This document shows, piece after piece, positions 31,417 through 55,100 of a stretch of 64,000 nucleotides of DNA. Location: assembly GCF_000149955.1 (NCBI RefSeq), contig NC_030988.1:5429710-5493709 (forward strand). Reading direction: 5' to 3'. Under the pieces are notes generated by a model. It did no database searches and was not told where the DNA came from. It was given only the letters and a program-made list of their open reading frames with translations. Every line of letters begins with the position of its first letter. The first letter of the stretch is position 1. Both the position numbers and the translations under genes were made by a program. The DNA is from Fusarium oxysporum f. sp. lycopersici 4287 (Eukaryota; Ascomycota; Sordariomycetes; Hypocreales; Nectriaceae).

Positions 31417-31509
31417 TAACGTACTTGATAAGCGAGTGCCACATACAAGCGAATGCAACACTTATACTGTACAGCTAAAAGTAAAAATATTAGATTTCCT
31501 AAAACTAGC
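31417..31509 (+). mobile_element. MITE end fragment, related TIR
   Basis: Begins TAACGTACTTGATAAGCGAG and has a second box TACAAGCGAATGCAACA, the same architecture as the neighbouring elements. Pogo element B follows directly at 31510; the rest of this MITE was not found. Confidence 0.6.
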
Positions 31510-33798: not shown

Positions 33799-34219
33799 CG
33801 AGTAATTAAAATTTACGAAAAATGATTTTGGATTTATTGGAGAAAAAGTTATACAATTTTCTTTTTATTAAACTTTTATTTAATTTTTTAAGCCATTAAT
33901 ACCAAAGATTAACAAAAGAATACAGTGTGAACAAGCTTTTTTGTATTAACTCTATAAATAATAATAGATAAAATTTAGTAAAATTCTCCTGCATAAGTTT
34001 CTATCTAATTACCCGTTGGCTCGACCTGACGGTGGCCAACTTAGCAAGCTAAGTTGGGCACAAAACCTTGAGACACGCACAAAAGGGTGAGACATATCTT
34101 CATTGGTGCAATCTACCTCCTTCAATGTTATCCGGAGATTGAGCATGGAAATAACCGGGAATAAAATACTGTAAATTACACTAACAAACTTACATTAAGT
34201 TTACTAGTTATCAAGATTG
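33799..34219. other. AT-rich intergenic, no gene seen
   Basis: Between MITE 2 and the assembly gap. No recognisable element ends or coding sequence. Confidence 0.5.
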
Positions 34220-34432
34220 NNNNNNNNNNNNNNNNNNNNNNNNNNNNNNNNNNNNNNNNNNNNNNNNNNNNNNNNNNNNNNNNNNNNNNNNNNNNNNNNN
34301 NNNNNNNNNNNNNNNNNNNNNNNNNNNNNNNNNNNNNNNNNNNNNNNNNNNNNNNNNNNNNNNNNNNNNNNNNNNNNNNNNNNNNNNNNNNNNNNNNNNN
34401 NNNNNNNNNNNNNNNNNNNNNNNNNNNNNNNN
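34220..34432. other. assembly gap (N run)
   Basis: 213 unresolved bases. Open frames drawn through the Ns have no meaning. It lies next to repeated element ends, a likely cause of the gap. Confidence 0.99.
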
Positions 34433-34439
34433 ATTTCCT

Positions 34440-36288
34440 TAACGTACATGATAAGCATGTGCACCAAACAAGTATGTGCACCAAAAATCCCTCAGCCATT
34501 ACCAATGCCAGTTTAATCAATTAATGCTCAGCCAATGACCATGCCTCAACTTTATTCTGAATGTCAAATTCTTCTTGCACTTCAAGCGCTTCGAAATAAC
34601 CCAAAATTAGGTCTCCGAGGCGCTGCTAGGTTATACCAAGTTAACTATTGGGCGTTGCGTCGCCGACAAAATGGGATCTAATCGCGACGTGACTGGATCC
34701 CGAAATCACGCAAACTAACTGATCTGGAGGAAGAGATTATAGTCAAGTTCATTCTCGACCTAGATTCGCGAGGATTTCCCCCCACGACTACGTGGTGTGG
34801 AAGAGATGGCTAACCGACTGCTCGCCGACCGCGACGCATCACCGGTCGGCAAGCGTTGGGCTATGAACTTCGTTAAGCGACACAAAGAGCTCAAAACGCG
34901 TTTTTTTCGTAAGTACGACTACCAGAGAGCCAAGTGCGAAGATCCGACTATTATTCGCAACTGGTTCAGGCTCGTGGAGAACACAATCGCTAAGTACGGC
35001 ATCTGATCGGATGACATCTGGAACTTTGACGAGACCAGCTTTATGATGGGCGTTATTGCAAGTGGAATGGTCGTCATAGGTGCAGAAAGGCGTGGAAAGC
35101 CGAAATCAGTGCAGCCTGGAAATCGGGAATGGATTACTGTCATCCAGGCGATCAATGCGGAACGTCGAGCGATCCCGCCGTTCATTATAGGTTCGGGCCA
35201 GTATCACCTTGCCAACTGGTACCGAGAAAATAACCTCCCAGGCGATTGGGCTATTGCAATAGCCCAAAATGGCTGGACTGACAATGAGATGGGCCTCGAG
35301 TGGCTAAAGCACTTTGACCGGTTTACAGCTAAGCGATCTAATAGTCGCTATCGTCTTCTGGTCCTTGATGGCCACGAAAGCCACCACTTGGTCGACTTTG
35401 AGAGATATTGTAAGGAGAACAAGATCATCACGCTTTGTATGCCGCCTCATTCGTCTCATTTACTTCAGCCTCTTGATGTCGGGTGCTTTTCCATGCTTAA
35501 GCAGGCATATGGCCGGGAAATCGAGCATCTGATCCGATGCTCTGTAACCCACGTTTCCAAGACCGAGTTCTTCTCGGCTTTTTATGCCGCATTTGAGGCC
35601 ACAATGACGGAGAAAAATATAAAATCAGCCTTTAGAGGAGCCGGGCTTGTGCCTCTTGACCCGGAAAGTGTGGTCTCAAAGCTTGATGTGCGGCTGCGGA
35701 CCCCAACGCCTGCCGAGGAGGTAGCTAGCCCCTCAACCCCTTGGGTCTCAAAGACGCCAAAAACCGTGCTTGAAGCACAATTTCAGTGTGAATACCTCGA
35801 TAGACGAATTAGGCGGCACCAAAGTAGCTCCCCAGAGTCAATTCTAGGAGCTCTGAAGTCTCTTGCTAAGGGAACCAAGGCGATAATGCACGAGAATGCC
35901 TTGTTAAGGGCTGAGAACCAAGACCTTCGACAAGCAAATGAGATACTAAGTCGGCGGCGGAATATGGAAAAAACCAGACTTCAGAAGGGAGGGGTGATGA
36001 CAGTAGAGGAAGGAAGGCAAGCGATTGGTCAGATGAATGTTGACGGGCAGGCAGTGGAAGAATCGTTGAGAAGTGGTAGTCAGGGAAGGTCGGTGCAAGC
36101 AAAGGAAAGGCATTGCGGAGCATGCGCAAGATGGGGCATAACGCAAGAACATGTCAGATAGTTGTTTCAGTGTCTGAGGAAGAGTATAGCAGCTAGTTTC
36201 AATTGATTTAGAGGTTCGTTGTGCTTTTGTGACGATTTACATCTTCTGGATCGATGTTTGTTGAGGCACTCGCTTATCATGTACGTTA
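34440..36288 (+). mobile_element. pogo-type transposon C, degraded
   Basis: TIRs start TAACGTACATGATAAGC. The left end has two boxes sharing ATGTGCACC; the right end has one box with GAGTGCC. The interior is colinear with element B, roughly four fifths identical by eye, but has several inactivating changes. Confidence 0.82.
34535..36161 (+). pseudogene. pogo-type transposase C, several breaks
   Basis: Same architecture as transposase B: helix-turn-helix, CENP-B-like domain, DDE_1 core (NFDETSF, LVLDGHESHHL, LLQPLDVGCFS) and coiled coil. Breaks relative to B: CAA to TAA at 34679-34681; a frameshift near 34780; CGA to TGA at 35004-35006; and a one-base loss in the terminal zinc knuckle near 36125. 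The Gly of the conserved DETGF is Ser here. It retains the base that B lost near 32695. It cannot make an active enzyme. Confidence 0.83.
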
Positions 36289-37524: not shown

Positions 37525-39059
37525 TCAGTCAAAAGCTTGCATAGCTTTCCATGCAGTGTAAGGCCGTTCCACGATCATTTCCTTGGCTGTGGGCAAGGCC
37601 GAGCGACCCTCCCCAAATCTGATACTGGAGCTCATAATCTCGCGCCATCTCCTGCCAGGAGCAATCTTGCCTGAGATAGTGTTAGGCACTAGGCTGTCAC
37701 TATTGATAGGAACCAGGGCTGGTCGCCCCAAGATAGTCTCCATGGCTTGTTGGGCAAAGGAAACTGCCTCCTTGGCATCCGATGGGACTCCGGTCTCATC
37801 TAGCGCCCGGATCTTTGTATCCGGAAGTTGCTCCCTGAGATATTTGATGATGGTCGGGTTTCGGGCACCACCGCCGCACATATAAACCTCTGCAATCTCA
37901 TCCACGCTGATACCGAAGTGAGGGAAGAATGTGCGGTATTGCTTGATGATATTCTGGGCCGTTATTCGAGTAATGGTTGCTAGTGTGTCGTACTTATCGC
38001 ACCCAGCAGCAAGACACTCGTTAAGCAGTTCTTGACCTTCATTGTCCCCAAATGTCTCCCGTCCTGTGGTCTTGGGAGGAACGTGGTTGCAGTACTTGTT
38101 TGTACTCAGAAACCTATCGACAATGTCCTGGCGCACGGTGCCTCTGGAGCTCCATTCGCCGTCTCTGTCATATTCCATCTCGCCGTTAGTGAAATATCTC
38201 ATGGCGTTGTCAATGAACATGTTGCCCGGGCCGCAGTCCCTAGAGATGTTAGTCGCTTCATTAGGGTGCTATGTAGAGGATTTCTCACCAGTCGACCATT
38301 GCGTCCACCCCGCCCTCGGAATCAGGGGGGATGACACAAAGATTGGCAATTCCACCAATATTCTGACAGACACGCCACTTGGTCGGGTGATGAAGCAGAA
38401 GGCCGTCAATCAGAGCAACCAAGGGGGCACCCTGTCTACCCACGGCTTGCTCTGCCATTCGGAAGTCTGTCACAGTTGTGATACCGGTGATGGCACTAAT
38501 AACTGTGCCCTCCCCAAGGCAAAATGCAGAACGTGTCTCCCCCTCTTCCGGCATGGACAGAAGCCAAATGGTCTGTCCATGTGATCCGATGAGGTCAATG
38601 CTGTCTATTGATATCTCGTGTTTATCGCAAAACTTTTTGACTGCATCACCAAACATCTGTCCAAGTTGCACATTGAGTTGCGACATTTTTGAGGGAGTCG
38701 TCTTGGTCTCCCGAAGCATCGTGAGAACGGGTTTCTTGATCCATTGAGGTACGGGGATCTCATCATACTAAGTATATGGTCAGCACCAGACGAGTAGATA
38801 GATACCGCGAAGTGAAACATACTTTAATGAGATCCATGTGTAGAGGGGCATCCGGAGACTCTTGGTAATATCGAACAAGTGCACAGTCGATACCGTCCAT
38901 GGCAGTGCCACTGTTCATTCCCAGGACGGTTAAGTCAAGCGCACCAGTGGTAGATGACCGAACATGGCCATTTCCATTGAAGGAATGGCCATTGGATTCA
39001 TGTGGTTGACCGTTGGTAACGCAACGGCTCCCATTTTGCTGGGTTTGTGGTCGTGTCAT
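37525..39059 (-). CDS. AnmK/levoglucosan-kinase-family sugar kinase, paralog 1
   Basis: Exons 39059-38823, 38767-38289 and 38239-37525 give 476 residues. Family motifs in order: [19 protein letters not shown] (phosphate-binding loop), [27 protein letters not shown] with the presumed catalytic Asp in [27 protein letters not shown] and MCGGGARNP. Family members open a 1,6-anhydro bridge while phosphorylating O6: bacterial AnmK acts on anhydro-N-acetylmuramate, yeast levoglucosan kinase on levoglucosan. Relative to paralog 2 it has a 45-residue Asn/Gly-rich N-terminal extension and differs at two conserved sites (DFRxxE for DFRxxD, DCGPGN for DTGPGN). It shares a divergent promoter with the DUF89 gene. 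Substrate is inferred, not shown. Confidence 0.87.
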
Positions 39060-39641
39060 GGTGAGATGATATGTTATGAAGTATGTGGAAACCTTAGCAA
39101 TATCTCTGCGAGACAGATCAGGTGAGATAATATATTAAGTTCAGTATGTTCGAGATCGTTGAATAGCTTCGGAATTTGTTCACGGACATGACTGCGCATT
39201 TAATATAATGTGGTATTCGATGGCGCCTCGATACGAATCGCATTGAGACTCCCCTGTTTGGAAGTTCGTGACGATGAGCGAAGAGCAATAGCAATTAGTA
39301 AACTTCCCGGAGGAGATGGTCCTCTGTTAGTGACTAGCTTACTCCACAGAGGGATCGCAAGCTCTAATTTCTTAGTATTTACACTAGTTTAACCTCTCTC
39401 GAGTCGAAGTGCCTTTTTGGGCAAGTCGTCTCGATGCTGAACTCGAGGCGCAAACCTTAATTATTTCCGTGTTGTCTCCGCCAATAAGCCTAACCAGAAT
39501 CAAATTGTCGGAAAGTTATCTAATCAATTGACAAATGCAAGTCCAGTAGAAAGGGAATAGAAACCTATTTATTCTCATCATAACACGACCTTGAATTTCT
39601 CATCCTGTTACTTGACAATAAGAGACTGTCAGCGAAAGAGT
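39060..39641. promoter_or_regulatory. divergent promoter, kinase 1 / DUF89 gene
   Basis: 582 bases between two start codons. TCGAGTCGAAG at 39399-39409 and the inverted TCGTCTCGA at 39426-39434 match the motif repeated in the promoter at 42966-43461. An open frame at 39210-39392 is not gene-like. Confidence 0.45.
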
Positions 39642-41066
39642 ATGCATAAAGAAATGGCAATCCCTCGGTCTGTGTGGACGTCCGACCATGGCAGCATGGC
39701 GCACGAGACTGCCAAGTATCGCTGGCCTAAGCTTGTACAGGGCATGATCGATGATGTCCGTTTTACCGGCGCTGAGCTTGCTCCATCCCGTGCCCTTGAC
39801 GAAATCAATTCGATAGAGAGAAGCCTTAAAAGACTCAGAGAGGAAATTACTGGTGATGATCAGCTGTGGTGAGTGCTCCTTATGAACTTCTCTCGTCGGT
39901 ATATCACTAAATAAAGCTCAGTCCCCTCGAAGATGATGGCTCGGTAGATATTGCGTCGTACAATCAGCTTCTCCTTAATATGGGCGAGTTGACCTGGCTC
40001 AACTGTCCATGGTTGTATGGTGAATGCTACCTGTATCGGTCAGTCTTGGAGTTGTTGTGTGCCGCCAAATGATGCTAACTTCTGCAGGCGAGTGCAGCTG
40101 TTATTTTCCATGTCATCTTCCTGGAAAGGGTACGATGTGTTTAAACGTCAAAAGGATTCTACCCTTGTCAAGTCGCAGAAGGCCGTCCAGGAGCTGGCGA
40201 GCAGGGTCACTCAAGTCATCGCAAACCCGATACAACCACTCCAAAGCTTGGACGACGATGCAGCGAGACTTGTCTTTTCTGAAATGACCGAGCTGGCTTT
40301 ATGGGGAAACGCAACAGATCTGTCTCTTCTGACCAACCTCAGTCTGGAGGAAATTCAGAAGTTACAAGGAAGCGCAGCGATCGAGGAGAGCCAGCGGAAC
40401 ATTGTCGACAATGATACATCACATGTGTGGCATTATCTGCGAAAGACTCAGTTGACTCAAAAAAATCGACATATCGACATCGTTCTTGACAATGCTGGAT
40501 TTGAGCTATTTGCAGACGTCCTCTACGCGGCATACCTCATTGCATCTGGACTCGGAACGAGCATCACTCTCCATGCGAAATGTTTTCCCTGGTTTGTCAG
40601 CGATGTATTACCCAGCGATATGGACTTCCTCCTCGACCATCTGCGGTCCACAGGCTTGAATTTTTTGGCCACTCAGATCAAGAGGTATCTCGAACTCGGC
40701 TTAATGCGTATCGAGGTTCATTCGTTTTGGACGACGGCTTGGTCATTTCATGAGATGGTCGCTGTAGCACCTGATCTATTTCAGCGTTTTCAGGACAGCT
40801 ATTTGACTATATGGAAAGGAGACTTGAATTATCGAAAGTTGACCAGAGACGGTCTCTGGCCACACACAACGACTTTCAAGTCTTCGCTTGGTCTACTAGG
40901 GCAACGAAGTGGTGTCAAGGTCCTCGCGTTGAGAACAAACAAGTCCGATACTTGCGTTGGAATAGGAAGTGAGGAGGCTGTCAAGCGACTTAACCGGGAG
41001 GCACCCGGGATGGGATGGGTTAGGGATGGGAAACATGCCGTGATATCATTCAGCGACGGCGTCTGA
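39642..41066 (+). CDS. DUF89/ARMT1-like metal-dependent phosphatase
   Basis: Exons 39642-39868, 39922-40038 and 40088-41066 give 440 residues. An N-terminal helical domain (TAKYRWPKLVQGMIDDV, AELAPSRALDEINSIERSL) precedes the catalytic domain. The latter carries the metal-binding DNAGFELFADVLYA (Asp249, Asn250), a Cys-less LHAKCFPWFVSDV strand region and WKGDLNYRKL. These fit the subfamily of damage-control phosphatases that includes the yeast enzyme active on fructose 1-phosphate and related sugar phosphates. In this cluster it may remove phosphate from side products of the kinases or act in the pathway itself. Its stop codon is only 16 bases from that of the convergent regulator gene, so the transcripts must overlap. 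The start could also be the Met at 39654. Confidence 0.87.
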
Positions 41067-41082
41067 GACAGATAATGTACTA

Positions 41083-42965
41083 CTAGCATTTTGACCACTC
41101 CTCTCGCAAAACATTGATTATCCAGGCAGTTGGCCAGGCATGCGATGACTCGAGATCCTCAAGCATGCTTACCAGGCTTGTTTGCTCTCGCTCATCTGTC
41201 ATCAAGGGAGCCCCTTTCATAGGTTAGACAATTCTGAGTTTTAACAATATGGTACGACCTACAAATAAATGTAGAGTGGCATAATGTGATGAGGGGTGGC
41301 ACAGTTCCCGGCGAGCCTTTGCATGCTCCACAAAGGGCTCGGGCGTGCTCCATGACAGACTCCTGAGGTGATGTCAATTGAGGCAAGTTACTCTATAACC
41401 CATGAACTCACATCAGATTCCGCCAGGGTTCGGCGGACATTTCGAATGACAAATCGCGGAGATGGACGGTAGACCTTTAAAAGCATCCTAGCCAGGTGAT
41501 AGAATCCAAATGCCATAACTGATAACCATCAGGTTCCATGGACTAACGGCGAATTGTTCAGGAATTTGTGCCTACCATGCCAATCTGCTGTAAACCAAAT
41601 CTCTGGAAAAGGATCTGCTCCCAGCTCTGGTTCTCCAGACCATAATGGATCAAACGTACTTGGCTTCGTCTTGTTCCAGTTCTCAACGGCCTCGGACAGC
41701 TCGTACCATCTTTGCATCCTTGTCGATGATTCTGAGTACAAGACACTTCCACTAAAACAGAAATGCATCACTGTAGCGCAAATCCATGTCATGGTATTTG
41801 CCCAGGCAGTCTCTGACTTGACATCGACAGCTTGTTGATGGACGACGGGTGGTGGTGGCATCAACACCAAGTCAAAATTCAAATTGGGCGGCTGCTGATT
41901 GATGCAGGCGTTGTAAAAGGATTGTCTGACATAAACCCAAAACGCAGCTTGAGAGAGGGTAGGTGCCGAGGGATCTACTTGTTGTCCTTGAGATGCCTTG
42001 AGCAGAGCACTCAACCCAGCAAGATGTCTCTCCTGATCACCGCCCGTCACAGTTACTGAGGTAAGGTTAGATGAGGAGAGTTACTGCGCAACGGGACTTA
42101 CCACTCAGTTGTTCGCATACGCGCAATATGACTATGGCGCAGAGGATAGTCTCGTCGTGGGCAATGGTCTCGGTACTTAGCAAGGGAATGAGAAGCACTA
42201 TACACTTTTCTTGGAATTCATCAGCTGTATTGTTATCACCTAAATGGCGAGCGGCATAAGAAATGATAGCATATAGAAGAATGGGTGAGCTCTTGGCCAG
42301 GACAGTCACATTAAGCGTAAACTGTCGTGATGCATCCGTACAGTCTAGCCACCGAGCCACGTGCGTGGAAAAGTGGTGTAGATAGAAAGCCTCCTGGCGT
42401 TGAAGCGCAGGAGGGACAGGGGTTATCCTAGGTACGCTCATGGGAGAGCCACCACTGTACTGGTTTGGAGATTCATGTTGACTAAGGTCGAAGATGGAAG
42501 CAGCTGAAGGCGGCGACGTCCGATTCTCGGGGCACCAAATTGAATCCGGCTGCTGTAGAGAGTTGAGTGGTGATGAGGGCCCTTCCGCCGATGGATTATC
42601 TCCTTCCGGAGGATGTAAGGAATGTTCACCATGGACCGGATGTTCCATTTGCTTTGGCCGGTATCGCTTAATCTTGAGCTGAGGGGATGAATCGTCCCAA
42701 CGGCACAGTCGGTCCCTCTTGAGGCACTAGTTTCACTTAGCTCCATCATCTTCTCGGTTCGGCAACTGGATATGCTTAACATACCAGTCCGCAAGTCGGT
42801 CTCGTCTCATCACCTGTGAAGTCAGTATAACGAATTTCGCTCTGTCCCTGGAGACGTACATTTGACCCGACGTTCTCGGCACGTAAGGCTATTCCATGTC
42901 ACCTATCATTCTGGAGCATCGGCTCATCTGACTTACCAGCCGTTACGAGATCGCAACTGACCCAT
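41083..42965 (-). CDS. Zn2Cys6 transcription factor of the kinase cluster (1)
   Basis: Eight exons: 42965-42937, 42888-42860, 42813-42785, 42726-42102, 42055-41576, 41518-41412, 41362-41263 and 41213-41083, giving 509 residues. Splicing assembles a perfect zinc cluster with Cys10, 13, 20, 27, 30 and 37 (GCLTCRERRVKC, then DETRPTCGLCLKRDRLC). The first three exons are each exactly 29 nt. Downstream are fungal-specific regulator segments (SSPILLYAIISYAARHLG, FGFYHLARMLL) and a typical C-terminal SSHAWPTAWIINVLREEW. It probably binds CGG-type sites in the nucleus and controls the cluster. It is divergent from MFS 1 and convergent with the DUF89 gene. The micro-exon models were inferred from frame and motif, so they need RNA evidence. 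Confidence 0.82.
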
Positions 42966-43461
42966 GTTACCCGGGCTGTTGTTTGCTTGCAGAAGCAGGG
43001 AAAGGATTTCGAGACGAATGAAGCAGAGATTCGAGACGAAGGATTCCGGGGGAGCGGAACTACCCGTTTATGCTGACTTTACTAGTGCAACATGCCCGCA
43101 TCTATGCTAAATTGTTCCAGTTTGCGCCATTATGGGTCCATTACTGGCTAATAATTTATCATCATGTTGTCAGAAAATCGGGGCCGCAACTTTTGAAACT
43201 AACTTTTGTTGGTAATTCGAGACGAGGACACAGCTCGCTAACATTCCGTAACAAATCCTCCGCGTGGCGCCGTGGCCAAATCCCCACGGGGTTAGAGTAG
43301 TCTAAGCTCGCAATCTCTGGGGAGAAGAAATAGATATAATGGGGGCATCTTGAACATCATGAGAACCTTTCCAATCGGCCATATCAAAACACAACCAATA
43401 ATACCTTGACACAACTGCACATACTACTGTATTAGTGTTACGACATTAATTCATCTGCATC
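42966..43461. promoter_or_regulatory. divergent promoter, regulator 1 / MFS 1
   Basis: 496 bases. TTCGAGACGAA occurs at 43008-43018 and 43030-43040, and TTCGAGACGAG at 43216-43226, all in the same orientation. A palindrome CCCCACGGGG lies at 43282-43291. The repeated motif recurs, slightly changed, in the kinase 1/DUF89 promoter. Confidence 0.5.
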
Positions 43462-45262
43462 ATGTGGAATCGCCAGAGCTGGAAGTCCATGTCCGGGCAG
43501 CAGCTGCTCAGGCTTGTTACAACTGCCTCCGCCGTTGCAATCTCCTACGAAGGCATCAGTCAGGGCGTTATGGGCGCTGTGACTGTCTCACCGGAGTTCG
43601 GACGACGCATGGGATACACAAACGATAAAGACGAAGTCGTCAAACCCATGCTGCAGGGCGGTATTGCCGCCGTATATTACTGGTATGTGTCCCCTTAGTC
43701 TGACAGGAAACAATAACTAATATTACTAAGTGGCTCTCTCTTCGCAGCCTTTTGGGCTGGCAGCTTCTCCGACAACTACGGACGTATCAAGGGCATGTGG
43801 ATGGCATGCTTCTGGTGTATGACCGGGGTTATCCTGCAAGCCTCTGCTGTCAACCTCGCACACATGCTTTGCGCACGATTCGTTGCTGGCATGGGTGTGG
43901 CTTTCATCCTCGTCATTGCCCCTATGTGGACGGCCGAGCTTTCTGCTGCATCACACAGAGGCAAGCAAATCGCTCTCACATTCTTGGCCAATTTCTGCGG
44001 CATCGCCCTCGCAGCGTGGATCGGTTTCGGCACGTCCTTTACTGAAGTGGGCGGTGGACAGTTTCGCTGGCGGTTCGAGTTTGCGATTCAAATCATTCCC
44101 GTAATCTCCCTGGCGGTACTGAGCCTCTTGGTCCCGGAGTCCCCGCGATGGCTGGTCAAGGCCGGGAGACCTGATGAAGCATTAGAAATTATTGCAAAGC
44201 TGCGGGGGGATGGTGACTCTCAACACCCTGATGCGCAGAATGAATATCGAGAGATTGTGACGGTAGTGGAAGAGGAGTCTCAGTACGCCAAAACCAACTA
44301 CTTCAAGATGTTTTTCGGTATCGGATCCGGAGACATTCATCTTGGCCGCCGCATCCAGCTTGCCTTCTGGCTCCAGGTGCTCATGCAGTATGGCACTGGA
44401 ATCGCAGCCGTGGTTATATAGTGAGTTATGCTTCTTTGAAAAAAGATAGTTTGCTAACTGCGTTGTAGTTCTGGAACCATCTATCGTACAGCCGGCTTTG
44501 ATAATGTCAAGTCCGGTTGGCTGTCCGGTTTACTGATGCTAGTTGGCATCTTGGGTACAGCTATCGCAGCCTTTACCATCGACAGGGTAGGTCGCCGAAG
44601 AACCCTTTACTGGGGTGCCGTAGCACTCAGTATCACCCTGTTCATTATCGGCGGCCTCTTTCGGGGAGCCATTGACAACCCAGACAAGGCTGTTCAATAC
44701 GGCACAGCAGCTTCAGCCATGGTCTTTATCTACCTCTTAATCTTCAGTTCTTCTTGGCTATTGATCCCTTTCATATATCCCACCGAGATCTTTCCCACCT
44801 GGCTCCGAGCCAAGGGGAATGCCTTTGGCGTGGCCGGCTGGGCTGTCGGCTACGGTGGAGGTTCTCTCTTGGTGCCTATTATGTTTTCTGGAATTAACGA
44901 AAAGGTATGGACTCGCCTCAACTACCCATGACTTTCTCATTTCTGACTTGGCTTGCAGACTTTCTACGTGTTCGGAGCGTAAGTATCCTTTGATCTGTCC
45001 GAAACTGGAAGTGGCCGCTGACCTTTTTACTAGTGCTATGTTTGCATACATTCCCTTGGTGTACTGCTTCCTCCCCGAAACTGCCGGCCGTACATTAGAA
45101 GAAGTGGACTATCTCTTTGCTAGTAAGAGTCCGTTCACTTGGGATGAGGAGAAAGAATTTGCGAAGCGTACAGCTCTCTTGCATGAAAGATTGAATAAAG
45201 GGAACGGGAGCGACGGAATGGCACAGGACAAGTCAATTGAATCACATGTCGAGGCTGTATAA
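43462..45262 (+). CDS. MFS sugar transporter 1 of the kinase cluster
   Basis: Exons 43462-43682, 43731-44420, 44469-44904, 44959-44978 and 45034-45262 give 531 residues. Twelve hydrophobic segments and sugar-porter signatures are present: FSDNYGRIKG (D-x-x-GR after helix 2), LVPESPRWLVKAGRPDEAL after helix 6, IDRVGRRRTLYWG between helices 8 and 9, YPTEIFPTWLRAKGNA, and PETAGRTLEEVDYLF after helix 12. This is the proton-coupled hexose/disaccharide family at the plasma membrane. The first intron (43683-43730) uses the TACTAAG acceptor; the more obvious downstream CAG gives the wrong frame. It would import the cluster's sugar substrate. It is about half similar in layout to MFS 2, and they may differ in affinity. 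Confidence 0.88.
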
Positions 45263-46075
45263 GCTATGTTCTGTATCATCTCGCATATAGTCAGAAGCTA
45301 ACTAGCAAGGGGTCGCACGTACTTATATAGCTGCTAAATGGAGGTAGTATAAGGAATCAGATTGGAGAATGTTTAGCCGGACTATAGACGATTGTTTTGC
45401 AGGCTCTACATTGCTACTAAACATAACATATAGGCAAGGAATGGCGGCTAGTCATTCATAGATTAACGCGTGGCTGTAGTAAGCATCAGAGGCTGATTGC
45501 ATGTATGTAGTAGTGGATTAATATATGGCCGTAATAATAGAGGTGCTGCGTTTGGTTTAACATGTTATAGCTGATTCTATGGCAACTAAAAATCCGGAGA
45601 CTTAAGGACACCATCGTAGCCGTGTAAAAGTTATAGCCTTACGTCTGTGGCTATAGTTATATCTATAGCAGACATTTCGATACTGCTGGTAGTCTCCGAT
45701 GTCATATTATTATTGAGTTTCATTAGGGTGATTAAGCTGATAATCAGCCTTAGGGAATAAGCTGTTTCAAGGATAGATTTTAGGTCAAGTGTTGGGTGGT
45801 TGAAAGGGTTGAAGGAACAGGGTCGAAGTGTAAAGCTGGACGTGAGAATGCCTTTGACTATGATATAATTGAGTGAACTCATCACATAAATCGGCAGGAT
45901 AGGTTAAGGCCAAATAGGTATAAGAGAACCCTGTTTTGATTGAGTGGCCTGAACTTAATAATTACAATAATTAATATTCATGGGGTTGTTCTACATAGAA
46001 ATAAGCCTTAATTTCTTGCAGGTATATAAAACTTTCGACACATACAAGTCTATCAGATAAGGCAGTAAAAAGAGT
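45263..46075. other. intergenic between convergent genes
   Basis: About 0.8 kb, AT-rich, with no supportable gene between the 3' ends of MFS 1 and kinase 2. Confidence 0.55.
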
Positions 46076-47413
46076 CTATTGCTTTATAGTACTAAACACT
46101 TGACCGCCAACATAATTAACAAGCTCTTTGACAGGTGGCAGATACTCCAAATCACCCCCAAAGCTCATTCCCTTCTTCAAGAGTTTACGATAATTTTTGC
46201 CTGGGCTTACCTTGCCGAGGATATACTCCCTTCTGGTCTCGACGCGTGAAGGAACAGGGATACTTCGCCCGACTACAGCCTCCATCCCTTGCCAGGCAAA
46301 TGTGATAGCTTCCTTGGCATCTGACGGGATACCAGCCTCGTCAAGCATGGTGATTCTCGTGTCAGGGAAGGCGTTCTGCATATACTCTGTAATGTTGGGG
46401 TTTCGCGCTCCGCCGCCGCACATGTATATTTCTGCTAGCGGACCGTACTGGGTTGGCATGTATCGCTTGTAGTGTTGCACAATAGCCTGAGCGGTAATAC
46501 GCGTGATGGTGGCCACAATATCATTTGGGGACATTCCCTTCTCGAGGCCACGATCGATTAAGTTGTGTGCAATCGTATCTCTGAAGACTTCCCTACCCGT
46601 CGTCTTGGGCGGATCAAGAGCAAAGTAGGGATGAGTTTGCAGGAACTCGTCGACCATCTGCTGGTCCACCTCTCCAGCTCGACCCATTTCACCGTCCTTG
46701 TCGTACTCTTTCTCGCCATCTGTAAAGAATCGCACCGCCGCATCGATAAAAACATTGCCAGGTCCAGTATCAAAGTCAAAGAACTCAGTGTTCAATGCAC
46801 CATCGACATCAGGCGGGATGAAACAAACATTTGCAATGCCGCCAATGTTTTGACAGGCTCGAAACTTGGTGGGGTGGTGAAGAAGCAGAGAGTCGAAGAA
46901 GCCGATGAGAGGAGCTCCCTGACGACCAGCGGCCTGATCCGAGACACGGAAATCAGTAACCGTAGTGATTCCAGTTCTAGAAGCAATAAAGCAACCCTCT
47001 GCCATGGTCAAGGCAGATTTTGTTTGCCCCTCCTCTGGGATACTGAGCAACCAGATGGTCTGGCCATGAGAGCCGACGGCATCAATGGATGACAGTGGAA
47101 TACCATGTTTCTGTGAGAATTGCATAACAGCACCTGAGAATGTCTCGCCAAGCAGGACATTGACCTCTGATAGTTCCTCGGGTGTGGTATTGTTGTGGAG
47201 GATCATGCGCATCACCCTTTTCTTGATGGTCTGTTCAAGAGGGATCTCGTCGTACTTCAAGAGCTCGAGATGCATCGGTGCATTTGGTGAGGCTTGTCGA
47301 AAGCGACACAAGGCGCAATCAATACCGTCCATGGACGTGCCAGAGTTTAAGCCCAATACGGTAATGTCCAGAGGCGCGTGAGCGTCTAGGAGAAGACCTT
47401 CGGTAGATCCCAT
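46076..47413 (-). CDS. levoglucosan-kinase-like sugar kinase, paralog 2
   Basis: An intronless frame of 445 residues from the ATG at 47413; an in-frame ATG at 47467 would add 18 residues. All AnmK/levoglucosan kinase motifs are present: [53 protein letters not shown] (catalytic Asp154), [31 protein letters not shown] and MCGGGARNP. From memory of the family, its overall wording is much closer to the characterised yeast levoglucosan kinase than to bacterial AnmK; for example AAGRQGAPL has Arg where bacteria have Gly. Expected reaction: levoglucosan plus ATP to glucose 6-phosphate, in the cytosol. It shares a divergent promoter with MFS 2. Unlike paralog 1 it lacks introns. Confidence 0.9.
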
Positions 47414-47928
47414 GGTAAAGATTCTGTAATATGAACGAAATAATTGTGAGAAACTGCTCGACAGCATATAGTTTGAAAGTAGAAGGCAAGGCTGCTATTT
47501 ATCCTATCCTTTAATGTCTGAGCCACCTCCAGATTCTGGGGTAGTTCCGGAAGAGGTGGTTTCGCCTCTCATACCTCGCCTAAGCAGTTAAAAGCTTAAA
47601 CTGTTAAATGGTTAAGCGGGCCTTTCGCTCCTGTCTTAAGGGCCACGAGTTTAAGCGTTTAAGCGTGCCAGACGCCACTCGGTTCTCGCCACTAACAGTC
47701 GCCACCCCGCAAAATTTGTGATTCGACCTGGGGAACCACGGGGAATTAGCTTCAAGGTTAGTCACTTGAAACGTTTCCTTGGTTCTTAGACAACCCCTTC
47801 TTTGATCATGTTGCGAAGGATATAAATCTCGTCGATTCCACTTCATGCCTGGGACTCAGGACACTGTTCATCAATCATCCCATCAGTACCGCAAATATAC
47901 CGACGTCCGAGCTACTGCATTCTACACT
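47414..47928. promoter_or_regulatory. divergent promoter, kinase 2 / MFS 2
   Basis: 515 bases. TATAAAT at 47821-47827 fits the core promoter of MFS 2 and argues for its start at 47929, not 47845. TTTAAGCG occurs in tandem near 47650-47665, with related TTAAGCG copies nearby. Confidence 0.5.
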
Positions 47929-49784
47929 ATGATCAACTTTCACGTCTGGAGGCATGTGCCTGGCAAGGCGTTGTTGTTTCTTATTAACCTTGTCGCTTCA
48001 ACAGCCTTGATCTTTGAAGGTGAGTTAGCCACAATTATTGTTGAGATGAACCAACTGACATAACATAGGGTTTAACCAAGGTGTGCTGGGGACTGTGAGC
48101 GAGACCCCTGGCTTCATCGATATGGCTGGCATTGGCTCCAATGGAGTTGTAACCAACTCAACCAAACAAGGTGGTCTTGCAGCAGCTTACTACTTTGGAG
48201 GCATGTGGGGTTGTTTTACAGGTGGTTAGTCAATTAGACATGCCTTGAAGAAGTCGGGATCATACTAATGACGGTTATAGGATGGGTTGGGGACAAGATT
48301 GGCCGCAAACGCGGTGTCTTAGTCGGCACGCTCTGCGGCATTCTCGGTGCTGCTCTCATGGCGGGCAGTATTAACTCCAACATGTTCCTCTGCGCTCGAA
48401 TTATCGCTGGTCTAGGGATTGGCTTTCTTAATGCCATCGTACCTCCTTGGGTTAGCGAACTGTCCGAAGCCCATGATCGTGGCTCTAGCTTCTCTCTGGT
48501 GTTTGTTTCCAACTATCTAGGCATCGCCATCGCATACTGGCTCAATTTTGGTCTTCGCAACACCAACACGGAGTTCCGTTGGCGCTTTCCGCTCGCCTGG
48601 ATGGCCATTCCTCTTATAATTGTGGACATTGCTCTCCCATTCCTGCCCGAGTCTCCTAGGTGTGTTTCTGTCATAACTGAACCTTGAAGAACTTGTATAC
48701 TGACAAGACTAGATGGCTCATTGCAAACGGGAGAAGAGAAGAGGCTGTCGATATCCTCTGCAAGCTTCGAGGCGACCTGACTCAAGACACACCCAAAATA
48801 GTTACCGAGCTTGCGCAAATCGACTCAATTGTCGAAGCCACCCATAACCGTCGCAATGACCTCCTCAACATAGCACTCGGCGGTCGATATTCCGGCAACC
48901 TCCATCTTGGAAGGCGAGCAGTCATGGGCTTTGCACTTCAGTGGATCCAGCAATGGACCGGCATATTGGCTATTGCTGCTTGGGCCGGCACCCTGTTCAA
49001 CCTGGCTGGTTTTGATACACACAAATCTATCTGGTTGGCTGGACTTGCCAACACTTTTGGCATTCCGGGAACTGTAGCAGCATCTTTTGTGATCGATCGA
49101 ATTGGTCGCATCAGATCCTTGATGGTTTCTTTCGTCACTCAAGGTATCGCACTGTTCCTTGTTGCTGCCTTTATTAAGACCTCCCAAGACGTGGCTGCTA
49201 CAGATTCTGAGAAGTCTCAACAGCTTGGTACTGCCGCGGCATCATTTGTCTTCGTCTATATCTGGTAAGGCACATTGCTAAAATTGTAGTTATTTTTGCT
49301 AACTTGATTCAGGTTCTTCACCATGTTCAACATCATTCCATGCTGGATCTATGGAACCGAAATCTGGCCCCAGGAGATTCGCGCCAAAGGTTACAGCTTC
49401 ACAATCTTCGGTTGGGCATGTGGCTGTGGCATGACTCAATTCGTCATTCCCATCATGCTTCAGAGGCTCGGCTGGGCTACCTATATATTTTTCGGGGCCA
49501 TGAATGTCGTTGCTATGCCTCTTGTCTGGTTCTTCTTCCCCGAAGTATCTAAAAAGTCCCTCGAGGAGATTAACCTCTTGTTCACGAGCAACAGTCTCCT
49601 CGTGTCTAAGAACATGGAGGAATATGAGAGGCGCTTGGCTGAAGCAGGCGGAGACGTCGCAGTAGCATCGAGACAGTTGCTTGATGAGGTCGATGGATAT
49701 GTTCAGCAGGTTCATGGCACTGAGAAGGATTTGGAGAACTGCGGAAATGGTACGATTGAGCAGCAAGATGTTATCGATGGTTAG
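47929..49784 (+). CDS. MFS sugar transporter 2 of the kinase cluster
   Basis: Exons 47929-48019, 48069-48221, 48281-48659, 48713-49264 and 49313-49784 give 548 residues. Sugar-porter motifs: GWVGDKIGRKRGV after helix 2, LPESPRWLIANGRREEAV after helix 6, IDRIGRIRSL between helices 8 and 9, YGTEIWPQEIRAKGYS, and FPEVSKKSLEEINLLF after helix 12. It has twelve predicted membrane segments and a long acidic C-terminal tail. An upstream in-frame ATG at 47845 is only 24 bases after the start of a TATA box, so I prefer 47929. Paired divergently with kinase 2, it is the most direct candidate for uptake of that kinase's substrate. It converges with regulator 2, 55 bases apart. Confidence 0.88.
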
Positions 49785-49839
49785 CTTGTTGATATGCGAG
49801 ATTGCACCTCGTAGCTGAAAACTCTTTAACACTAAAATA

Positions 49840-51718
49840 TCAATTCAAGTTGAAGTTCCACGTCAGGTCTCCAAGATGCTCTCCATTTTCTGGAAACGTC
49901 CAGTCCAATGCACCATCTGGGATGATCTCCTGATAGCTTTGGGCTACTTGGCTGTCCAGTACCGATTCTTCCATCATGCCTTCAGATGCTGTCAGGACCG
50001 CGGCTGATGGGGCAATCTGTCGCTGTCTAGTCATGTACTCATCAATTCGAGAAACTTGTGATCGGAGCTTCTCGCTCGCACTGGTGCTGTGGTGGATAAC
50101 CTCCAGGTTCTCTAACAGCAGCGCCATTGAGAGCATTACTCCCCGTACACGAGTATAGTCGGCCTCGCTGAGCGGCTCTTCTAACACATTACCTAAAATC
50201 GATCCAATACCTCCAAGGTGGTGCAGGAGCGGGGTGCTGATAGAAAGCAGATAAGCAATCGGTATAGAGACAAATGCTTCGACGACTTCGCTGGCGATCT
50301 GGCAACGCTGTTCGATGCTGGTTCCGCTACCGGCGAAGAGGACAATACGCAGTAGCTGAAATGTGGCAGTGATATTCGCGGCCTGGAACCCGAAACGATC
50401 TTTCTTGACGTTACAGACCATTAGGGGCGTTTCTTTGAAGCAATCTGGCAAGTTGAGGTACATTCGAAAGACGCTCTCGCGAACTGATGCTTTTGCAGCA
50501 GTAAAGTCCTCCTCAAACATCCCTATCAAGAACGAATTTGTGGTTTGTCGCCTTCGGTAGCCTCGGAGCCGCGTCAAGGCATGTTCGAGGACGCGATACA
50601 AGTCTGTGATGAAATTCCACCCTGATAGCCAGCACTCCGCTCGTCCTGCAAAAGACTGACTGTCGTTTCCAGGTGTTGGATCTTGTGCTGTTATTCCGTT
50701 ATCGTCGATCATGTCATCGTCAACTTCTGTTGGATAGGCTACGTAAGATTGGCACTCGCTACATCGAATGATGCCACCCCAAACCACTGCCGTGTAGATG
50801 TCGAGTGTATACATAGACCAAAACTAAAAAACATTGTTAGCTTACTTGTCGCAGGAACGATGATTTGGCATGTCGGACCAGTCTTCTCCTCTCCTCTCGT
50901 TCCACGACGTCAATATTGCGTGGCCAATTGGCCTCATTATGTAATCCATCCATCGCCACCAGAGTGTGATACGAGCCAAGATGGTGGTGCATGTCGCGCG
51001 TCTTTCCATTTTGAATAGCTGCAATGGCAAGAATTGCATGCGCTCGAAGGATGTGTATGTTTGACTCTGTCGCGAGCTCCAGGAGCTGTTTCTTGGCCTC
51101 ATCGTAGAACAATTCTGGTTGTATCTTATATAGTGGCTCGAGGTCCCATTTGGGGTTTGTTACTGACCCGTCTCGTATGCGACCACTGACCAGGGCACAA
51201 AGAGCCATCGTGACAGAAAAGATGGATTTCTCGCTTGTGTACTCGGCTCGAGAGACTCTTCTAACGAACGTTGGCTGGTGAAAGAACGGGAATATTGGGT
51301 AAACAACCTCGAAATAGATCTCAATTAGGTCCATGATGCTGGCTTGGCTGGCAATATGTGGTGCCTTCCATTGATTGTCGTGAACAGAGACGGCTCGCGG
51401 CCTGGGTACGCATCTCACATCATGGGATGGATGGCTACTTTCTTGGGCCGGTTCAGCATTCGCAGCGTTAAGAGGCGGACGCGCAGCGTCTTCTGAGTAG
51501 TTCTTATGGTCTGTTGATTCATCCCGAGGCTTTGTCCCGCGTCGTCGAGGTGTTCGATGATAGGTGCATTCTTGTGCAAAGTCTTTGCAGTTTTGACATC
51601 CCTGGTTGTCGCTTGATGGCCGGCATCTAATGCTGCGTTGATGGCAGTAGTCGCACGCTTGTGTAATGCGCCTACGCTTAGTATTTGACTTCTTGGGGGC
51701 TTTATTGCCATTTGCCAT
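49840..51718 (-). CDS. Zn2Cys6 transcription factor of the kinase cluster (2)
   Basis: Two exons, 51718-50879 and 50823-49840, give 608 residues. The zinc cluster is of the XlnR/AmyR-like spacing: Cys22, 25, 32, 41, 44 and 51 (ACDYCHQRSIRC, eight residues, CQNCKDFAQEC), followed by RTPRRRGTKP. The middle region has the fungal-specific factor domain: IDLIEIYFEVVYPIFPFFH-type sequence (here IMDLIEIYFEVVYPIFPFF), then RRLFWSMYTLDIYTA across the intron, and YPTEVDDDMI. The XlnR/AmyR-type linker is common among regulators of carbohydrate use, which fits a sugar-catabolic cluster. It lies at the cluster's edge and converges with MFS 2. Target sites are unknown. Confidence 0.87.
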
Positions 51719-52104: not shown

Positions 52105-55100
52105 CAGGGTTGCAATCCACTCCACTGAATCCACGCGTGGATCCACTGAGTGGATCCACGATCCATTCCACGAGGCTGGTCGGCTGGTGGATTATGTAAT
52201 CCATCCATTCCACTCGAAGCGCTCGTGGAGTGGATGGAGTGGATTTGAAGTGGAGTGAGTTAGGGGCTCCCTGCCAAGTTAGGTGTGAGCGCTTAGCTCT
52301 GACTGACAGCTACCCTAGAACAAAAAAACAATGAACTCTCTTGACATCGCAGCTTTTACTGGCATTTAACAAAATCAGTGCCGTTAGAACCGCCGCATTT
52401 TTCTCATTGGAGCTATATAAATCACAGTATGCCGGCTAAAGCTTTGCATGACAAACAACAAAGTGAAGGAAAAAGTAGTCCACCATTCATTCACTTTTCA
52501 ATGACAGAAGGGGGCTCGGATTGCCCCCGCCACCGACTAATTTAATGTAGTCCCAAAGACCCACGAAAGCTTGAGAGCTGCAGGAAGCTCCCTTTATCTC
52601 TCCTTTTTCGTCTTTTCCTCACTTTCATCCCTAGCGTCAGGATGCTTGCGCCCAGTTAGTTGTCAATATACTCCGTTGGGACTGTTACAGTATGCCTGCC
52701 TTGCCTCGGCCATGGCATTTATCTTATCATTACCGAAATGGGGATTCCATCTGCTCCTGGTCAGGGGTAGCTCTGGCGAGAGCTCAAGGGCCGCGATAGA
52801 GACGATCTTCTTCACCTTCTTTAATCGTAACATTTTCTTGTTACGCTTTGCCCTATTTTCCACGCGATTTTGACACGGCCACGAGCTTTCATTCAAGATG
52901 GCTTCTTCCGATTCTTGCCTTATTACTCCCATCCAACGCCGTCCCCGACGCCTTCTCTGTCGCCTTCAACCCCGACGCCCGTGTTGAGACCGACCGAGAC
53001 CCCTCCGGAAGACGAAGACAATCACGAAGCAACCCTTCGATATCACTTCCGTGGCTGGGCACTCTCCGAACGAAGCAGAGAAACTGCTTCTTGGGCCTGG
53101 CCTTTTGGATATTACATCCAAAAGGACGAGCAGCGCAGATGGGTCTGTCGAGCCTGCATTCGCAAGAGGAACCCTTGTCCAGGCAACTTTGACTCCGATG
53201 GCATTCAAAACGCGTATAATCACCTATTTTCTGAACATGGAATCCGCGCTCCGTTTAGCAAGACGAAAGGAACCGCTGAAAAGAAAGCTGATTCTCTAAG
53301 TGTTAAGGCGACGGGGCAGAAGTCCATCGTGGAAGCCTTGAAGCTTGACTTGCACAACCCACGAGAACAAGCAATTGCAAACACTGTTATTAAGCGTTTC
53401 GACCGCGATCACTTTCAACGGCTTCTAATGAACTGGATCGTCGCTAGAAACCATTCTTTTTCCATTGCAGAAGAAAACGAACTGCGAGAAATATTCGACT
53501 ACTTGAACCCGTCAGTCTCGGTTCGTGACGCCAACCTTACCCACACGACGATCAAGGAAAAAGCCACTTCAGCGTTCAAACAACACAAGCAGAAAGTTGT
53601 CGAGGTACTCCGCAAGGCGCCTGGCCTTATCCACATCTCATTTGACGGCTGGAGGTCTGGAAATCGGCATGCTTTATATGGAGTGTGTTGTTTTTTCAGG
53701 GACGAAAACAACAAGCCGTGCAAGGTTACAATAGGGGTCCCCGAGCTCAGCGTCAGTCACACAGGGACAAATATCGCGGCCGAAATCCTCGACGTTATCG
53801 AAGCCTATCAGATTCAAGACAAGATTGGATATTTCACGCTGGATAACGCGGAAAACAACGATACTGCTATGGAGATAATTGGTGGAGAGCTGGGCTTCGT
53901 TGGCAAGACTAGGCGAGGGCGCTGTTTTGGCCGCACTCTGAACCTCTCGGCCAAAAGCATACTTTTCGGCCACAAAGCTGACGCGTTCGAACGGCAACTA
54001 TCTGGGCAGGCGCCTTTATCAGAAGCCGAGCACTTGCTTTGGCAGAAGAGGGGTCCAGTGGGCAAATTGCACAATGTTGTGGTATTTATCCATAGATCTG
54101 ACAAGTTGACTGACTTGCTTCGAGAGCTCCAGCGGACCGCCTTCGACCAGTCGCCTGACCCTAAAGTCAGGACTAAGAAGCCTTTGGACGTTGTTTTGGA
54201 TAACGATACTCGATGGCTTCGCAGTTATACATGATCCGACGTGCGCTTCAGCTGCGTGATCACATTGAACTGCTTATCGCGCGATACCGGGTGGAGTTCG
54301 AACAACAGCATAAGACCAAAAGGGGCACCACAAAGAAGTCTGCCAAACTGCCATATATTTGCGAGCCAGAACACCAGTTATCTGACAAGGACTGGGAGGT
54401 TCTCGAAATCTTTTCGCAGCTTCTAGGCTATTATGAGTGCACGATTAAGATGCTTGAAGGCGATGGCCAAATCCGCAAGCGGAAGCGTGGATGGATGGGC
54501 TCATATGGTAATGTTTGGGATGTTATCCAAGGCTTCGAATTCCTTCTTGACAAGCTTGAGGACTATAAGGCTATGGCTGAACGCTTTCCTGACGCCGAAC
54601 ACTTCAGGATTAACATCAATTTGGGTTGGCAGAAGCTTGATAAGTATTACCAGCTGTTAAGCGAAACGCCTATCTATTATACTGGGCTGGCGCTCCATCC
54701 AGCGTACCGCTGGAAATGGTTCGACCGCAAGTGGGCCGGTAACCCTGAATGGATTCGTCAGGCCAAGCGAATCGTTCACGATGTATGGCACTACGAGTAT
54801 CGTGAGGCCAGGTTACCTCGAAGGGCTGTGAATGACGAAAAACCAGCTCTCAAACGGCGGAAGACGTACAGCAATCCGTTCCAAGAATACCTGGAAGAAA
54901 ACCGCTGCGCAGCATCAGCGACGCAAGGTGACGACAGCCTCGAGCCGTTTGAAGATGAGTATCAGCACTGGATTTCGAACCATGAGAGTGGTGATGCCCA
55001 AGTTCGTGACCCTCTTGCTTATTGGCACGAGAAAAGGTTCAAGTATCCACGTCTGTCACGAATGGCCCTTGATTTCCTTACGATCCAGCCGATGTCCGCT

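What the first reader, a model, noticed from the sequence alone, without database searches (positions are those of the whole stretch)
37525..51718. Putative anhydro-sugar (levoglucosan) utilisation gene cluster
Seen: two AnmK/levoglucosan-kinase-family genes, a DUF89 phosphatase, two MFS sugar porters and two Zn2Cys6 regulators, contiguous and bounded by transposon remnants. Known: the yeast (Lipomyces) levoglucosan kinase belongs to the AnmK family and makes glucose 6-phosphate; DUF89 subfamily enzymes dephosphorylate sugar phosphates. Inferred: the seven genes form a dedicated pathway for uptake and phosphorylation of a 1,6-anhydro-sugar, from pyrolysed cellulose (levoglucosan) or from peptidoglycan turnover (anhydro-muramate). 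I know of no described fungal cluster with this composition.
Basis: partly seen in the sequence, partly recalled or inferred. Interest (0 to 1): 0.85.

Follow-up and report, generated by a model that had tools for sequence, protein, structure and literature searches.

The report
Two fungal anhydro-sugar use modules
A mould related to Fusarium oxysporum carries, side by side, a textbook levoglucosan (burnt-cellulose sugar) kinase and a second gene set, apparently undescribed and kept together across many fungi, that pairs a different kinase of the same family with a sugar-phosphate phosphatase, a sugar importer and its own switch.

Summary
In detail: seven intact genes at 37525-51718, flanked by transposons. 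The reading as one seven-gene pathway does not. There are two modules. Right: kinB is a clear levoglucosan-kinase orthologue (72% identical to the Lipomyces enzyme), beside transporter MFS2 and regulator TF2. Left: kinA-DUF89-TF1-MFS1. KinA belongs to a separate, well-supported fungal clade, 51% identical to levoglucosan kinase, with 30 clade-fixed differences, two of them next to the catalytic Asp. Among listed database hits, 23 of 61 kinA-type rows share a contig length with this DUF89 and/or MFS1; 0 of 37 levoglucosan-kinase rows do. The left module has its own promoter motif, TCGAGACGA: four exact copies in 64 kb, all in its two divergent promoters. The same four genes recur, ~97% identical, on a second contig; every part readable there is open. 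I infer that kinA phosphorylates a different anhydro-sugar whose phosphate is not glycolytic, and DUF89 releases the free sugar (galactosan to galactose 6-phosphate to galactose is my favourite). The substrate is untested. A peptidoglycan role is disfavoured: no MurQ etherase match reaches its cut-off in the genome.

The parts
37525..39059 (-). kinA: AnmK-family kinase of a distinct fungal clade (exons 38823-39059, 38289-38767, 37525-38239; 476 aa)
   Evidence: gene model; PF03702 4.8e-81; clade
39060..39641 (.). divergent kinA-DUF89 promoter; one exact TCGAGACGA (39426-39434, - strand) and three one-mismatch copies
39642..41066 (+). DUF89 / ARMT1-like sugar-phosphate phosphatase (exons 39642-39868, 39922-40038, 40088-41066; 440 aa), RTNK motif
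41083..42965 (-). TF1: Zn2Cys6 regulator, 8 exons, 509 aa
42966..43461 (.). divergent TF1-MFS1 promoter; three exact TCGAGACGA (43009, 43031, 43217)
43462..45262 (+). MFS1: sugar-porter family transporter, 5 exons, 531 aa
   Evidence: close relative P0241 over the NCBIfam sugar-porter cut-off; linkage
46076..47413 (-). kinB: levoglucosan kinase orthologue, intronless, 445 aa
   Evidence: PDB 4yh5 E=1.2e-211; 72% identity
47414..47928 (.). divergent kinB-MFS2 promoter; no TCGAGACGA; three GTTTAAGC copies (weak)
47929..49784 (+). MFS2: sugar-porter family transporter, 5 exons, 549 aa (about 39% identical to MFS1)
49840..51718 (-). TF2: Zn2Cys6 / Fungal_trans regulator, 2 exons, 607 aa (Zn cluster match marginal)
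21438..36161 (+). left flank transposable-element frames: DDE_1 at 21438-23291, 31569-32723, 35007-36161; reverse transcriptase/integrase (Gypsy, label recalled) at 25532-29368
54204..61454 (+). right flank transposable-element frames: hAT dimerisation domain 54204-55370, DDE_Tnp_1_7 60573-61454

Best explanation
Two neighbouring anhydro-sugar catabolic modules. Module 2 (kinB, MFS2, TF2) imports levoglucosan and converts it with ATP to glucose 6-phosphate. Module 1 (kinA, DUF89, TF1, MFS1) is a separate fungal unit found in several classes. MFS1 imports an anhydro-sugar other than levoglucosan. KinA opens its 1,6-anhydro ring and phosphorylates it with the family's conserved catalytic Asp. 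The product is a hexose phosphate that glycolysis does not take directly, so DUF89 removes the phosphate and the free sugar enters its normal route. TF1 controls the unit through TCGAGACGA sites in its two divergent promoters. Shown here: gene content, clade separation, substitutions beside the catalytic Asp, linkage in hit lists from other fungi, shared motif, an open and mostly conserved second copy. Inferred: transport, kinase and phosphatase substrates, order of steps, TF1 binding, the grouping of MFS2 and TF2 with kinB. Leading substrate guess: galactosan (to galactose 6-phosphate, to galactose).
For: KinB: 72% identical to Lipomyces levoglucosan kinase, E=1.2e-211. KinA: 51% to the same enzyme, in a clade of 32 with support 1.0; the clade of levoglucosan kinase has support 0.99. 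30 positions are fixed differently (at least 95% in each clade), including both neighbours of the catalytic Asp (F211 to W239, T213 to C241, LGK to kinA numbering), D156 to E185, W368 to Q402, F169-F170 to L198-I199, T133-M134-A135 to C162-L163-G164. Locus tags agree in Thermoascus, two Penicillium assemblies, Exophiala, Fusarium lateritium and Vermiconidia. The cluster DUF89 is about 40% identical to the genome's C4 paralogue in the main matched stretch and differs in the RTxK motif. Motif: 4 of 4 exact copies in the window lie in module 1 promoters; 0 of 2000 paired shuffles repeat the pattern; the close motif pair occurs in the genome only here and in the second copy. Second copy: no frameshift or internal stop in readable parts, dN/dS 0.06-0.37.
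Against: No substrate has been tested. KinA is still 51% identical to levoglucosan kinase with the same fold, so it might use levoglucosan too. Several of kinA's clade residues are those of bacterial AnmK (G164, V196, W268; C241 as in the Pseudomonas chain), so part of the difference lies on the levoglucosan-kinase side. That the substituted residues line the sugar pocket is inferred from closeness in sequence; no coordinates were available, and the model is of low confidence at 185-189. DUF89 enzymes are regarded as damage-control phosphatases, and its role could be clean-up. MFS1 close relatives are missing from the 120 listed hits for Fusarium species other than F. oxysporum, apart from a partial one, so the four-gene unit is not universal. 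TF1 linkage elsewhere was not searched. The dN/dS values rest on few changes (DUF89 4 synonymous, 5 not; TF1 16 and 19) and were not tested for significance. The modules are adjacent here, and the second copy also holds the 3' end of kinB, so the adjacency is older than the duplication.
Confidence: 0.55

Rival explanations
1. One levoglucosan pathway: both kinases act on levoglucosan (high and low affinity), both porters import it, and DUF89 is a damage-control enzyme that hydrolyses stray sugar phosphates.
For: Contiguity of the seven genes; a close kinA relative has the family fold (TM to target 0.92 with 4zfv) and kinA keeps the catalytic Asp; part of kinB is also in the second copy. DUF89 members are described as damage-control enzymes (passage of PMC8669784).
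Against: KinA-type and levoglucosan-kinase rows never share a contig length in the listed hits (0 pairs), and lie on contigs of different length in Stachybotrys elegans and Thermoascus crustaceus. Separate promoter motif. Clade-fixed changes beside the catalytic Asp.
Confidence: 0.25
2. Peptidoglycan salvage: kinA (or both kinases) phosphorylates 1,6-anhydro-MurNAc taken up from bacterial cell walls.
For: Family name; kinA shares the DCGPGN motif with the Pseudomonas aeruginosa AnmK chain and a few other residues with bacterial AnmK.
Against: No MurQ match above cut-off in the genome; the one partial stretch scores 24.2 bits against 302 (the search is exon by exon, so a gene broken by introns would score lower than it should). 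KinB and P0001, a close relative of kinA, score below the cut-offs of all 14 NCBIfam AnmK models that they hit. No etherase or amidase among the seven genes. The porters are sugar-porter type.
Confidence: 0.05
3. KinA has left anhydro-sugars: it phosphorylates an ordinary sugar or sugar alcohol, and DUF89 reverses or polices that phosphorylation.
For: W368 and F211, the same in levoglucosan kinase and the two bacterial AnmK chains compared, are replaced in the kinA clade.
Against: The catalytic Asp, GPGN and SHGQT are invariant over the 35 aligned sequences of both clades.
Confidence: 0.1
4. No functional unit: neighbours gathered by transposon activity.
For: Transposable elements on both flanks; the module copy lies on a contig whose first 251 bases are repeated at 22 other places.
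Against: Linkage in hit lists from many fungi, one a basidiomycete; shared motif; open second copy with dN/dS below 0.4.
Confidence: 0.05

Closest known systems
Levoglucosan kinase (Lipomyces starkeyi, PDB 4yh5, 4zfv, 4zlu; also reported from Aspergillus niger and red yeasts)
   Same: KinB is an orthologue (72% identity, same clade); kinA shares fold and catalytic Asp
   Different: KinA is a sister clade at 51% with fixed changes beside the catalytic Asp; in the hit lists it is linked to DUF89 and MFS1, which levoglucosan-kinase rows are not
Bacterial AnmK-MurQ muramate recycling (P. aeruginosa 3qbw, 8bre)
   Same: Same superfamily; ATP-driven opening of a 1,6-anhydro bond is the family chemistry (recalled)
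   Different: No MurQ above cut-off; sugar-porter uptake; a phosphatase in place of an etherase
DUF89 subfamily III damage-control phosphatases (yeast YMR027W, S. pombe SPAC806.04c and SPCC1393.13, human ARMT1)
   Same: Same family; Asp-Asn and RTxK signatures; sugar-phosphate substrates expected
   Different: About 40% to the genome's C4 paralogue; RTNK, where the C4 paralogue and SPAC806.04c have RTCK and SPCC1393.13 has RTIK; co-located with a sugar kinase and porter, which suggests a pathway role rather than clean-up
Fungal catabolic gene clusters (such as the GlcNAc cluster of Trichoderma reesei, PMC4950302, seen only as a search listing)
   Same: Enzymes plus transporter plus regulator (general kind, recalled)
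   Different: Different chemistry; a kinase followed by a phosphatase

Membership tests
Levoglucosan kinase (kinB) | AnmK domain and orthology to characterised Lipomyces LGK | tested here: met
   72% identity; clade support 0.99
Levoglucosan kinase (kinB) | catalytic Asp in FDTGPGN | tested here: met
   its catalytic role is recalled
Levoglucosan kinase (kinB) | ATP-dependent conversion of levoglucosan to glucose 6-phosphate | not testable with these tools
   needs assay
Levoglucosan kinase (kinA) | membership of the LGK clade | tested here: not met
   separate clade, support 1.0; 51% identity to LGK
Levoglucosan kinase (kinA) | LGK-type residues next to the catalytic Asp | tested here: not met
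   F211 to W (32 of 33), T213 to C (33 of 33), D156 to E (33 of 33), W368 to Q (32 of 33)
Levoglucosan kinase (kinA) | activity on levoglucosan | not testable with these tools
   needs assay
AnmK muramate kinase (kinA, kinB) | NCBIfam AnmK equivalog cut-off | tested here: not met
   best 357 (P0001, 92% identical to kinA; kinA itself was not scanned) and 364.3 bits (kinB) against cut-off 387; below all 14 models hit
AnmK muramate kinase (kinA, kinB) | MurQ etherase in the same genome | tested here: not met
   24.2 bits against cut-off 302, partial; exon-by-exon search
DUF89 subfamily III sugar-phosphate phosphatase | PF01937 and similarity to fungal subfamily III structures | tested here: met
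   4.1e-78; SPAC806.04c 1.1e-100, SPCC1393.13 8.8e-90, YMR027W 4.6e-80
DUF89 subfamily III sugar-phosphate phosphatase | metal-site Asp-Asn-Asp and RTxK signature (features recalled) | tested here: met
   D249, N250, D287; RTNK at 397-400
Sugar porter (SP) MFS family | NCBIfam TIGR00879 SP subfamily cut-off | tested here: met
   P0241, 98% identical to MFS1, 240.9 against 237.8 bits; MFS1 and MFS2 themselves hit PF00083; MFS2 was not scanned against NCBIfam

The most novel reading that the evidence does not exclude
Module 1 is a eukaryotic pathway for galactosan (1,6-anhydro-galactose, from burnt hemicellulose). KinA makes galactose 6-phosphate, a dead end for fungal metabolism, and a dedicated DUF89 phosphatase turns it into galactose for the Leloir pathway. 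This would be a first catabolic (not damage-control) role for a DUF89 enzyme and a first pathway for a pyrolytic anhydro-sugar other than levoglucosan.
Probability: 0.25. Interest if true: 0.75.

Novelty: new variant of a known kind. Interest (0 to 1): 0.55.

Why it matters
Biomass burning is estimated to make about 90-100 million tonnes of anhydro-sugars a year (passage of PMC5840395; abstract start of PMC4752346). A 2016 paper states that utilisation pathways had been reported only for levoglucosan (PMC4752346, passage). A conserved kinase-phosphatase-porter-regulator unit in fungi would give a testable route for the others. It would also give a DUF89 phosphatase, a family seen mainly as damage control, a defined metabolic partner.

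Tried and rejected
One levoglucosan pathway with seven genes: set aside because linkage, motif and clade evidence split the cluster. Muramate salvage: set aside for lack of a MurQ match and of AnmK equivalog scores. Decay of the locus: rejected; the genes are open here, and the readable parts of the second copy are open too. Repeat-induced point mutation of the copy: no excess of C>T/G>A over the reverse (32+32 against 30+29). A shared motif across all three divergent promoters: none of 8 bases or more. A kinB-MFS2 motif (GTTTAAGC) exists but is weak: 76 of 2000 shuffles have some 8-mer at least three times, and 7 of 100 window shuffles reach the count. With one mismatch allowed, TCGAGACGA is not rare in the window as a whole (15 found, 11.25 expected, 14 of 100 shuffles reach 15); the argument rests on exact copies and where they lie. 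The structure model of a kinA orthologue only confirmed the fold; no coordinate file appeared, so no pocket was measured. Synteny in other fungi could be read only through contig lengths and locus tags, because no other fungal genome could be searched here. The hit lists are centred on the query and cut at 120 rows, so absence from a list is weak evidence.

Papers: the Lipomyces LGK and two P. aeruginosa AnmK structure papers are not held; what I say of their chemistry is recalled. Passages only were read, in eleven papers; no paper was read whole.
Full report
What is there. The window lies at 5.43-5.49 Mb of a 5.63 Mb contig (C3) of a 61.2 Mb genome in 71 contigs. The closest listed relatives of DUF89 (96%) and MFS1 (98%) are from Fusarium oxysporum. 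They form three divergent pairs (kinA/DUF89, TF1/MFS1, kinB/MFS2) plus TF2. Transposable-element frames flank both sides.

Kinases. KinB is a levoglucosan kinase by orthology: 1.2e-211 to the crystallised Lipomyces starkeyi enzyme, 72% identity over the aligned chain, inside the clade of that enzyme (42 tips, support 0.99). KinA also matches that enzyme best (2.1e-144), but at 51% identity. It falls with 31 other sequences (67-92% identical to it; Fusarium, Stachybotrys, Trichoderma, Exophiala, Aspergillus, Penicillium, Aureobasidium and a Tremellales basidiomycete among them) in a clade with support 1.0. P0076 from Saitoella sits at its base; P0081, also Saitoella, groups with levoglucosan kinases although it was in the first 81 rows. 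Only 33 of those 81 rows (430 residues or more) were put on the tree. Between 33 kinA-type sequences (kinA, the 31 others and P0076) and 41 levoglucosan-kinase-type sequences, 30 alignment positions are fixed differently at 95% or more. They include both residues next to the catalytic Asp (Phe-Asp-Thr becomes Trp-Asp-Cys), Asp156 to Glu, Trp368 to Gln and Phe169-Phe170 to Leu-Ile. Some of kinA's residues at these 30 positions (G164, V196, W268, and C241 in the Pseudomonas chain) equal those of bacterial AnmK, so part of the difference arose on the levoglucosan-kinase side. The catalytic Asp and the GPGN and SHGQT motifs are invariant over 35 sequences of both clades. A structure model of the close orthologue P0001 (mean pLDDT 82, but below 50 at 185-189) matches levoglucosan kinase 4zfv at TM 0.92 and bacterial AnmK at up to 0.90, normalised by target. 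So the chemistry is probably kept and the sugar specificity probably changed; that these residues contact the sugar is inference.

Phosphatase. The cluster DUF89 is closest among solved structures to S. pombe SPAC806.04c, then SPCC1393.13, then yeast YMR027W. The genome has another DUF89 gene on C4, about 40% identical in the main matched stretch. Of 95 aligned cluster-type sequences (the 94 of 120 listed hits with at least 415 residues, plus this one), 94 have Asn at 399 in the RTxK motif; R, T and K are each kept in 90. The C4 paralogue and SPAC806.04c have Cys there and SPCC1393.13 has Ile. Yeast YMR027W works best on fructose 1-phosphate and is regarded as damage control (passage of PMC8669784).

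Linkage in other fungi. No other fungal genome could be searched, so I compared the contig length printed for each protein hit. Rows with a contig of 5 kb or more: first 81 rows of the kinA search 61, the 39 levoglucosan-kinase rows that follow 37, DUF89 101, MFS1 95. Identical lengths: kinA-DUF89 17 pairs, kinA-MFS1 11, DUF89-MFS1 8; levoglucosan kinase with DUF89, MFS1 or kinA none. So 23 of 61 kinA rows have at least one partner, against 0 of 37. On long contigs this shows the same contig, not neighbourhood; of the six kinA-DUF89 pairs on contigs over 1 Mb, four are backed by locus tags and two (Stachybotrys, Coniochaeta) are not. Locus tags, as far as the shortened names show them: six assemblies give tags for both kinA and DUF89. 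Five are one or two numbers apart (Fusarium lateritium 004781/004780, whose listed contig lengths differ and which is not among the 17; Thermoascus 2429/2428; two Penicillium assemblies 008316/008315 and 006329/006328; Exophiala spinifera 07891/07893). The sixth (Didymella) is on one 59.7 kb contig with distant numbers. For kinA and MFS1, three of four assemblies are two or three apart (Thermoascus, Exophiala xenobiotica, Vermiconidia); the fourth (Saitoella coloradoensis) is unlinked, and its kinase is the one that groups with levoglucosan kinases. In Stachybotrys elegans and Thermoascus crustaceus, which have both kinase types listed, the levoglucosan kinase is on a contig of another length than kinA. 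Limits: lists are query-centred, cut at 120 rows and clustered at 90%, and the levoglucosan-kinase rows come partly from other species than the DUF89 and MFS1 rows, so the zero is not a matched control. TF1, TF2, MFS2 and kinB were not used as queries of the protein database, so the grouping of MFS2 and TF2 with kinB rests on position here.

Regulation. TCGAGACGA occurs four times in 64 kb (0.47 expected; 0 of 100 shuffles reach four): three in the TF1-MFS1 promoter and one in the kinA-DUF89 promoter. In 2000 paired shuffles nine had some 9-mer three times in the first promoter, and none had it also in the second. Two copies within 30 bases occur in the genome only here and in the second copy of the module (2 sites, backward control 0). 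Allowing one mismatch the window holds 15 sites against 11.25 expected; 7 of the 15 are in these two promoters. The kinB-MFS2 promoter has none. TF1 as the binder is inference.

Second copy. Contig C45 (17.2 kb) holds the module again: it aligns to 36908-38506, 40496-45639 and 45708-46183 at 97.2, 97.4 and 95.4%, and ends 108 bases into kinB's 3' end. A 2.07 kb N run hides the rest of kinA, the kinA-DUF89 promoter and part of DUF89. The readable parts of kinA (311 codons), DUF89 (190), TF1 (510) and MFS1 (532) have no gap and only the terminal stop. Synonymous and non-synonymous changes are 9 and 2, 4 and 5, 16 and 19, 23 and 10; dN/dS is 0.06, 0.37, 0.35 and 0.13, not tested for significance. 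Coding divergence is 1.9%, non-coding 4.2%. The three TF1-MFS1 motif copies are kept. A search with the kinB-MFS2-TF2 stretch found no second copy, only a 212-base piece on C7.

Function. The best MurQ match is partial, 24.2 of 302 bits (the family is found over cut-off in 5 of 14 control genomes, and introns could lower a true score). A galactokinase domain is present. A kinase followed by a phosphatase makes sense when the kinase is needed to open the anhydro ring but the resulting phosphate is not a glycolytic intermediate. Levoglucosan gives glucose 6-phosphate and needs no phosphatase; galactosan would give galactose 6-phosphate, which (recalled) fungi do not use directly. This is the reason for the galactosan guess. 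It is a hypothesis without assay.

Literature. Six papers hold 'levoglucosan kinase' with 'fungi' and three hold it with 'gene cluster', seven different papers in all. I saw passages of two of them, PMC5651581 and PMC8753852, and listings of the rest; nothing seen describes such a cluster. One paper lists AN3498 (MFS) beside AN3499 (AnmK-type) in Aspergillus nidulans in a table around another cluster (PMC8762651, passage). The library holds only open-licence papers, so 'undescribed' means not found in these searches.

Noticed in passing
L006/L007 (G000 contig C45, 7321-17210): A second copy of kinA-DUF89-TF1-MFS1, ~97% identical and open in its readable parts, on a contig whose first 251 bases are repeated at 22 other places in the genome.
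   Followed up: yes
window 49834-50045 and L015 (G000 C7:1501829-1502040): A 212-base, 99.5% identical fragment of the 3' end of TF2 lies between other open frames on another contig; how it was copied is unknown.
   Followed up: partly
kinA, window 37525-39059: The nearest kinA relative on the tree is from Trichoderma gamsii (support 0.87), closer than the Fusarium fujikuroi protein; possible gene transfer or unequal paralogues. The database is clustered at 90%, so nearer Fusarium proteins may be hidden.
   Followed up: partly
MFS1, window 43462-45262: Close full-length MFS1 relatives are listed only from F. oxysporum (97-98%); the next is from Hortaea werneckii (76%), though other Fusarium species have kinA and DUF89 genes. 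A partial one from F. chlamydosporum (74%) and an unnamed 90% fragment are listed too.
   Followed up: no
window 25532-29368: A reverse transcriptase/integrase frame (Gypsy type, label recalled) of 1278 codons is open from end to end.
   Followed up: no
window 52075-52300: A dense block of short repeats built on GGATCCAC / GAGTGGAT lies upstream of TF2, before the hAT element.
   Followed up: no
window 47594-47664: Three GTTTAAGC copies in the kinB-MFS2 promoter may mark a separate regulator site; statistically weak.
   Followed up: partly
literature, Ophiostoma novo-ulmi OphioH327g4206: An AnmK-annotated gene of another fungus is reported as over-expressed in mycelium (logFC 3.67; PMC4632067, passage); which of the two clades it belongs to was not checked.
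   Followed up: no
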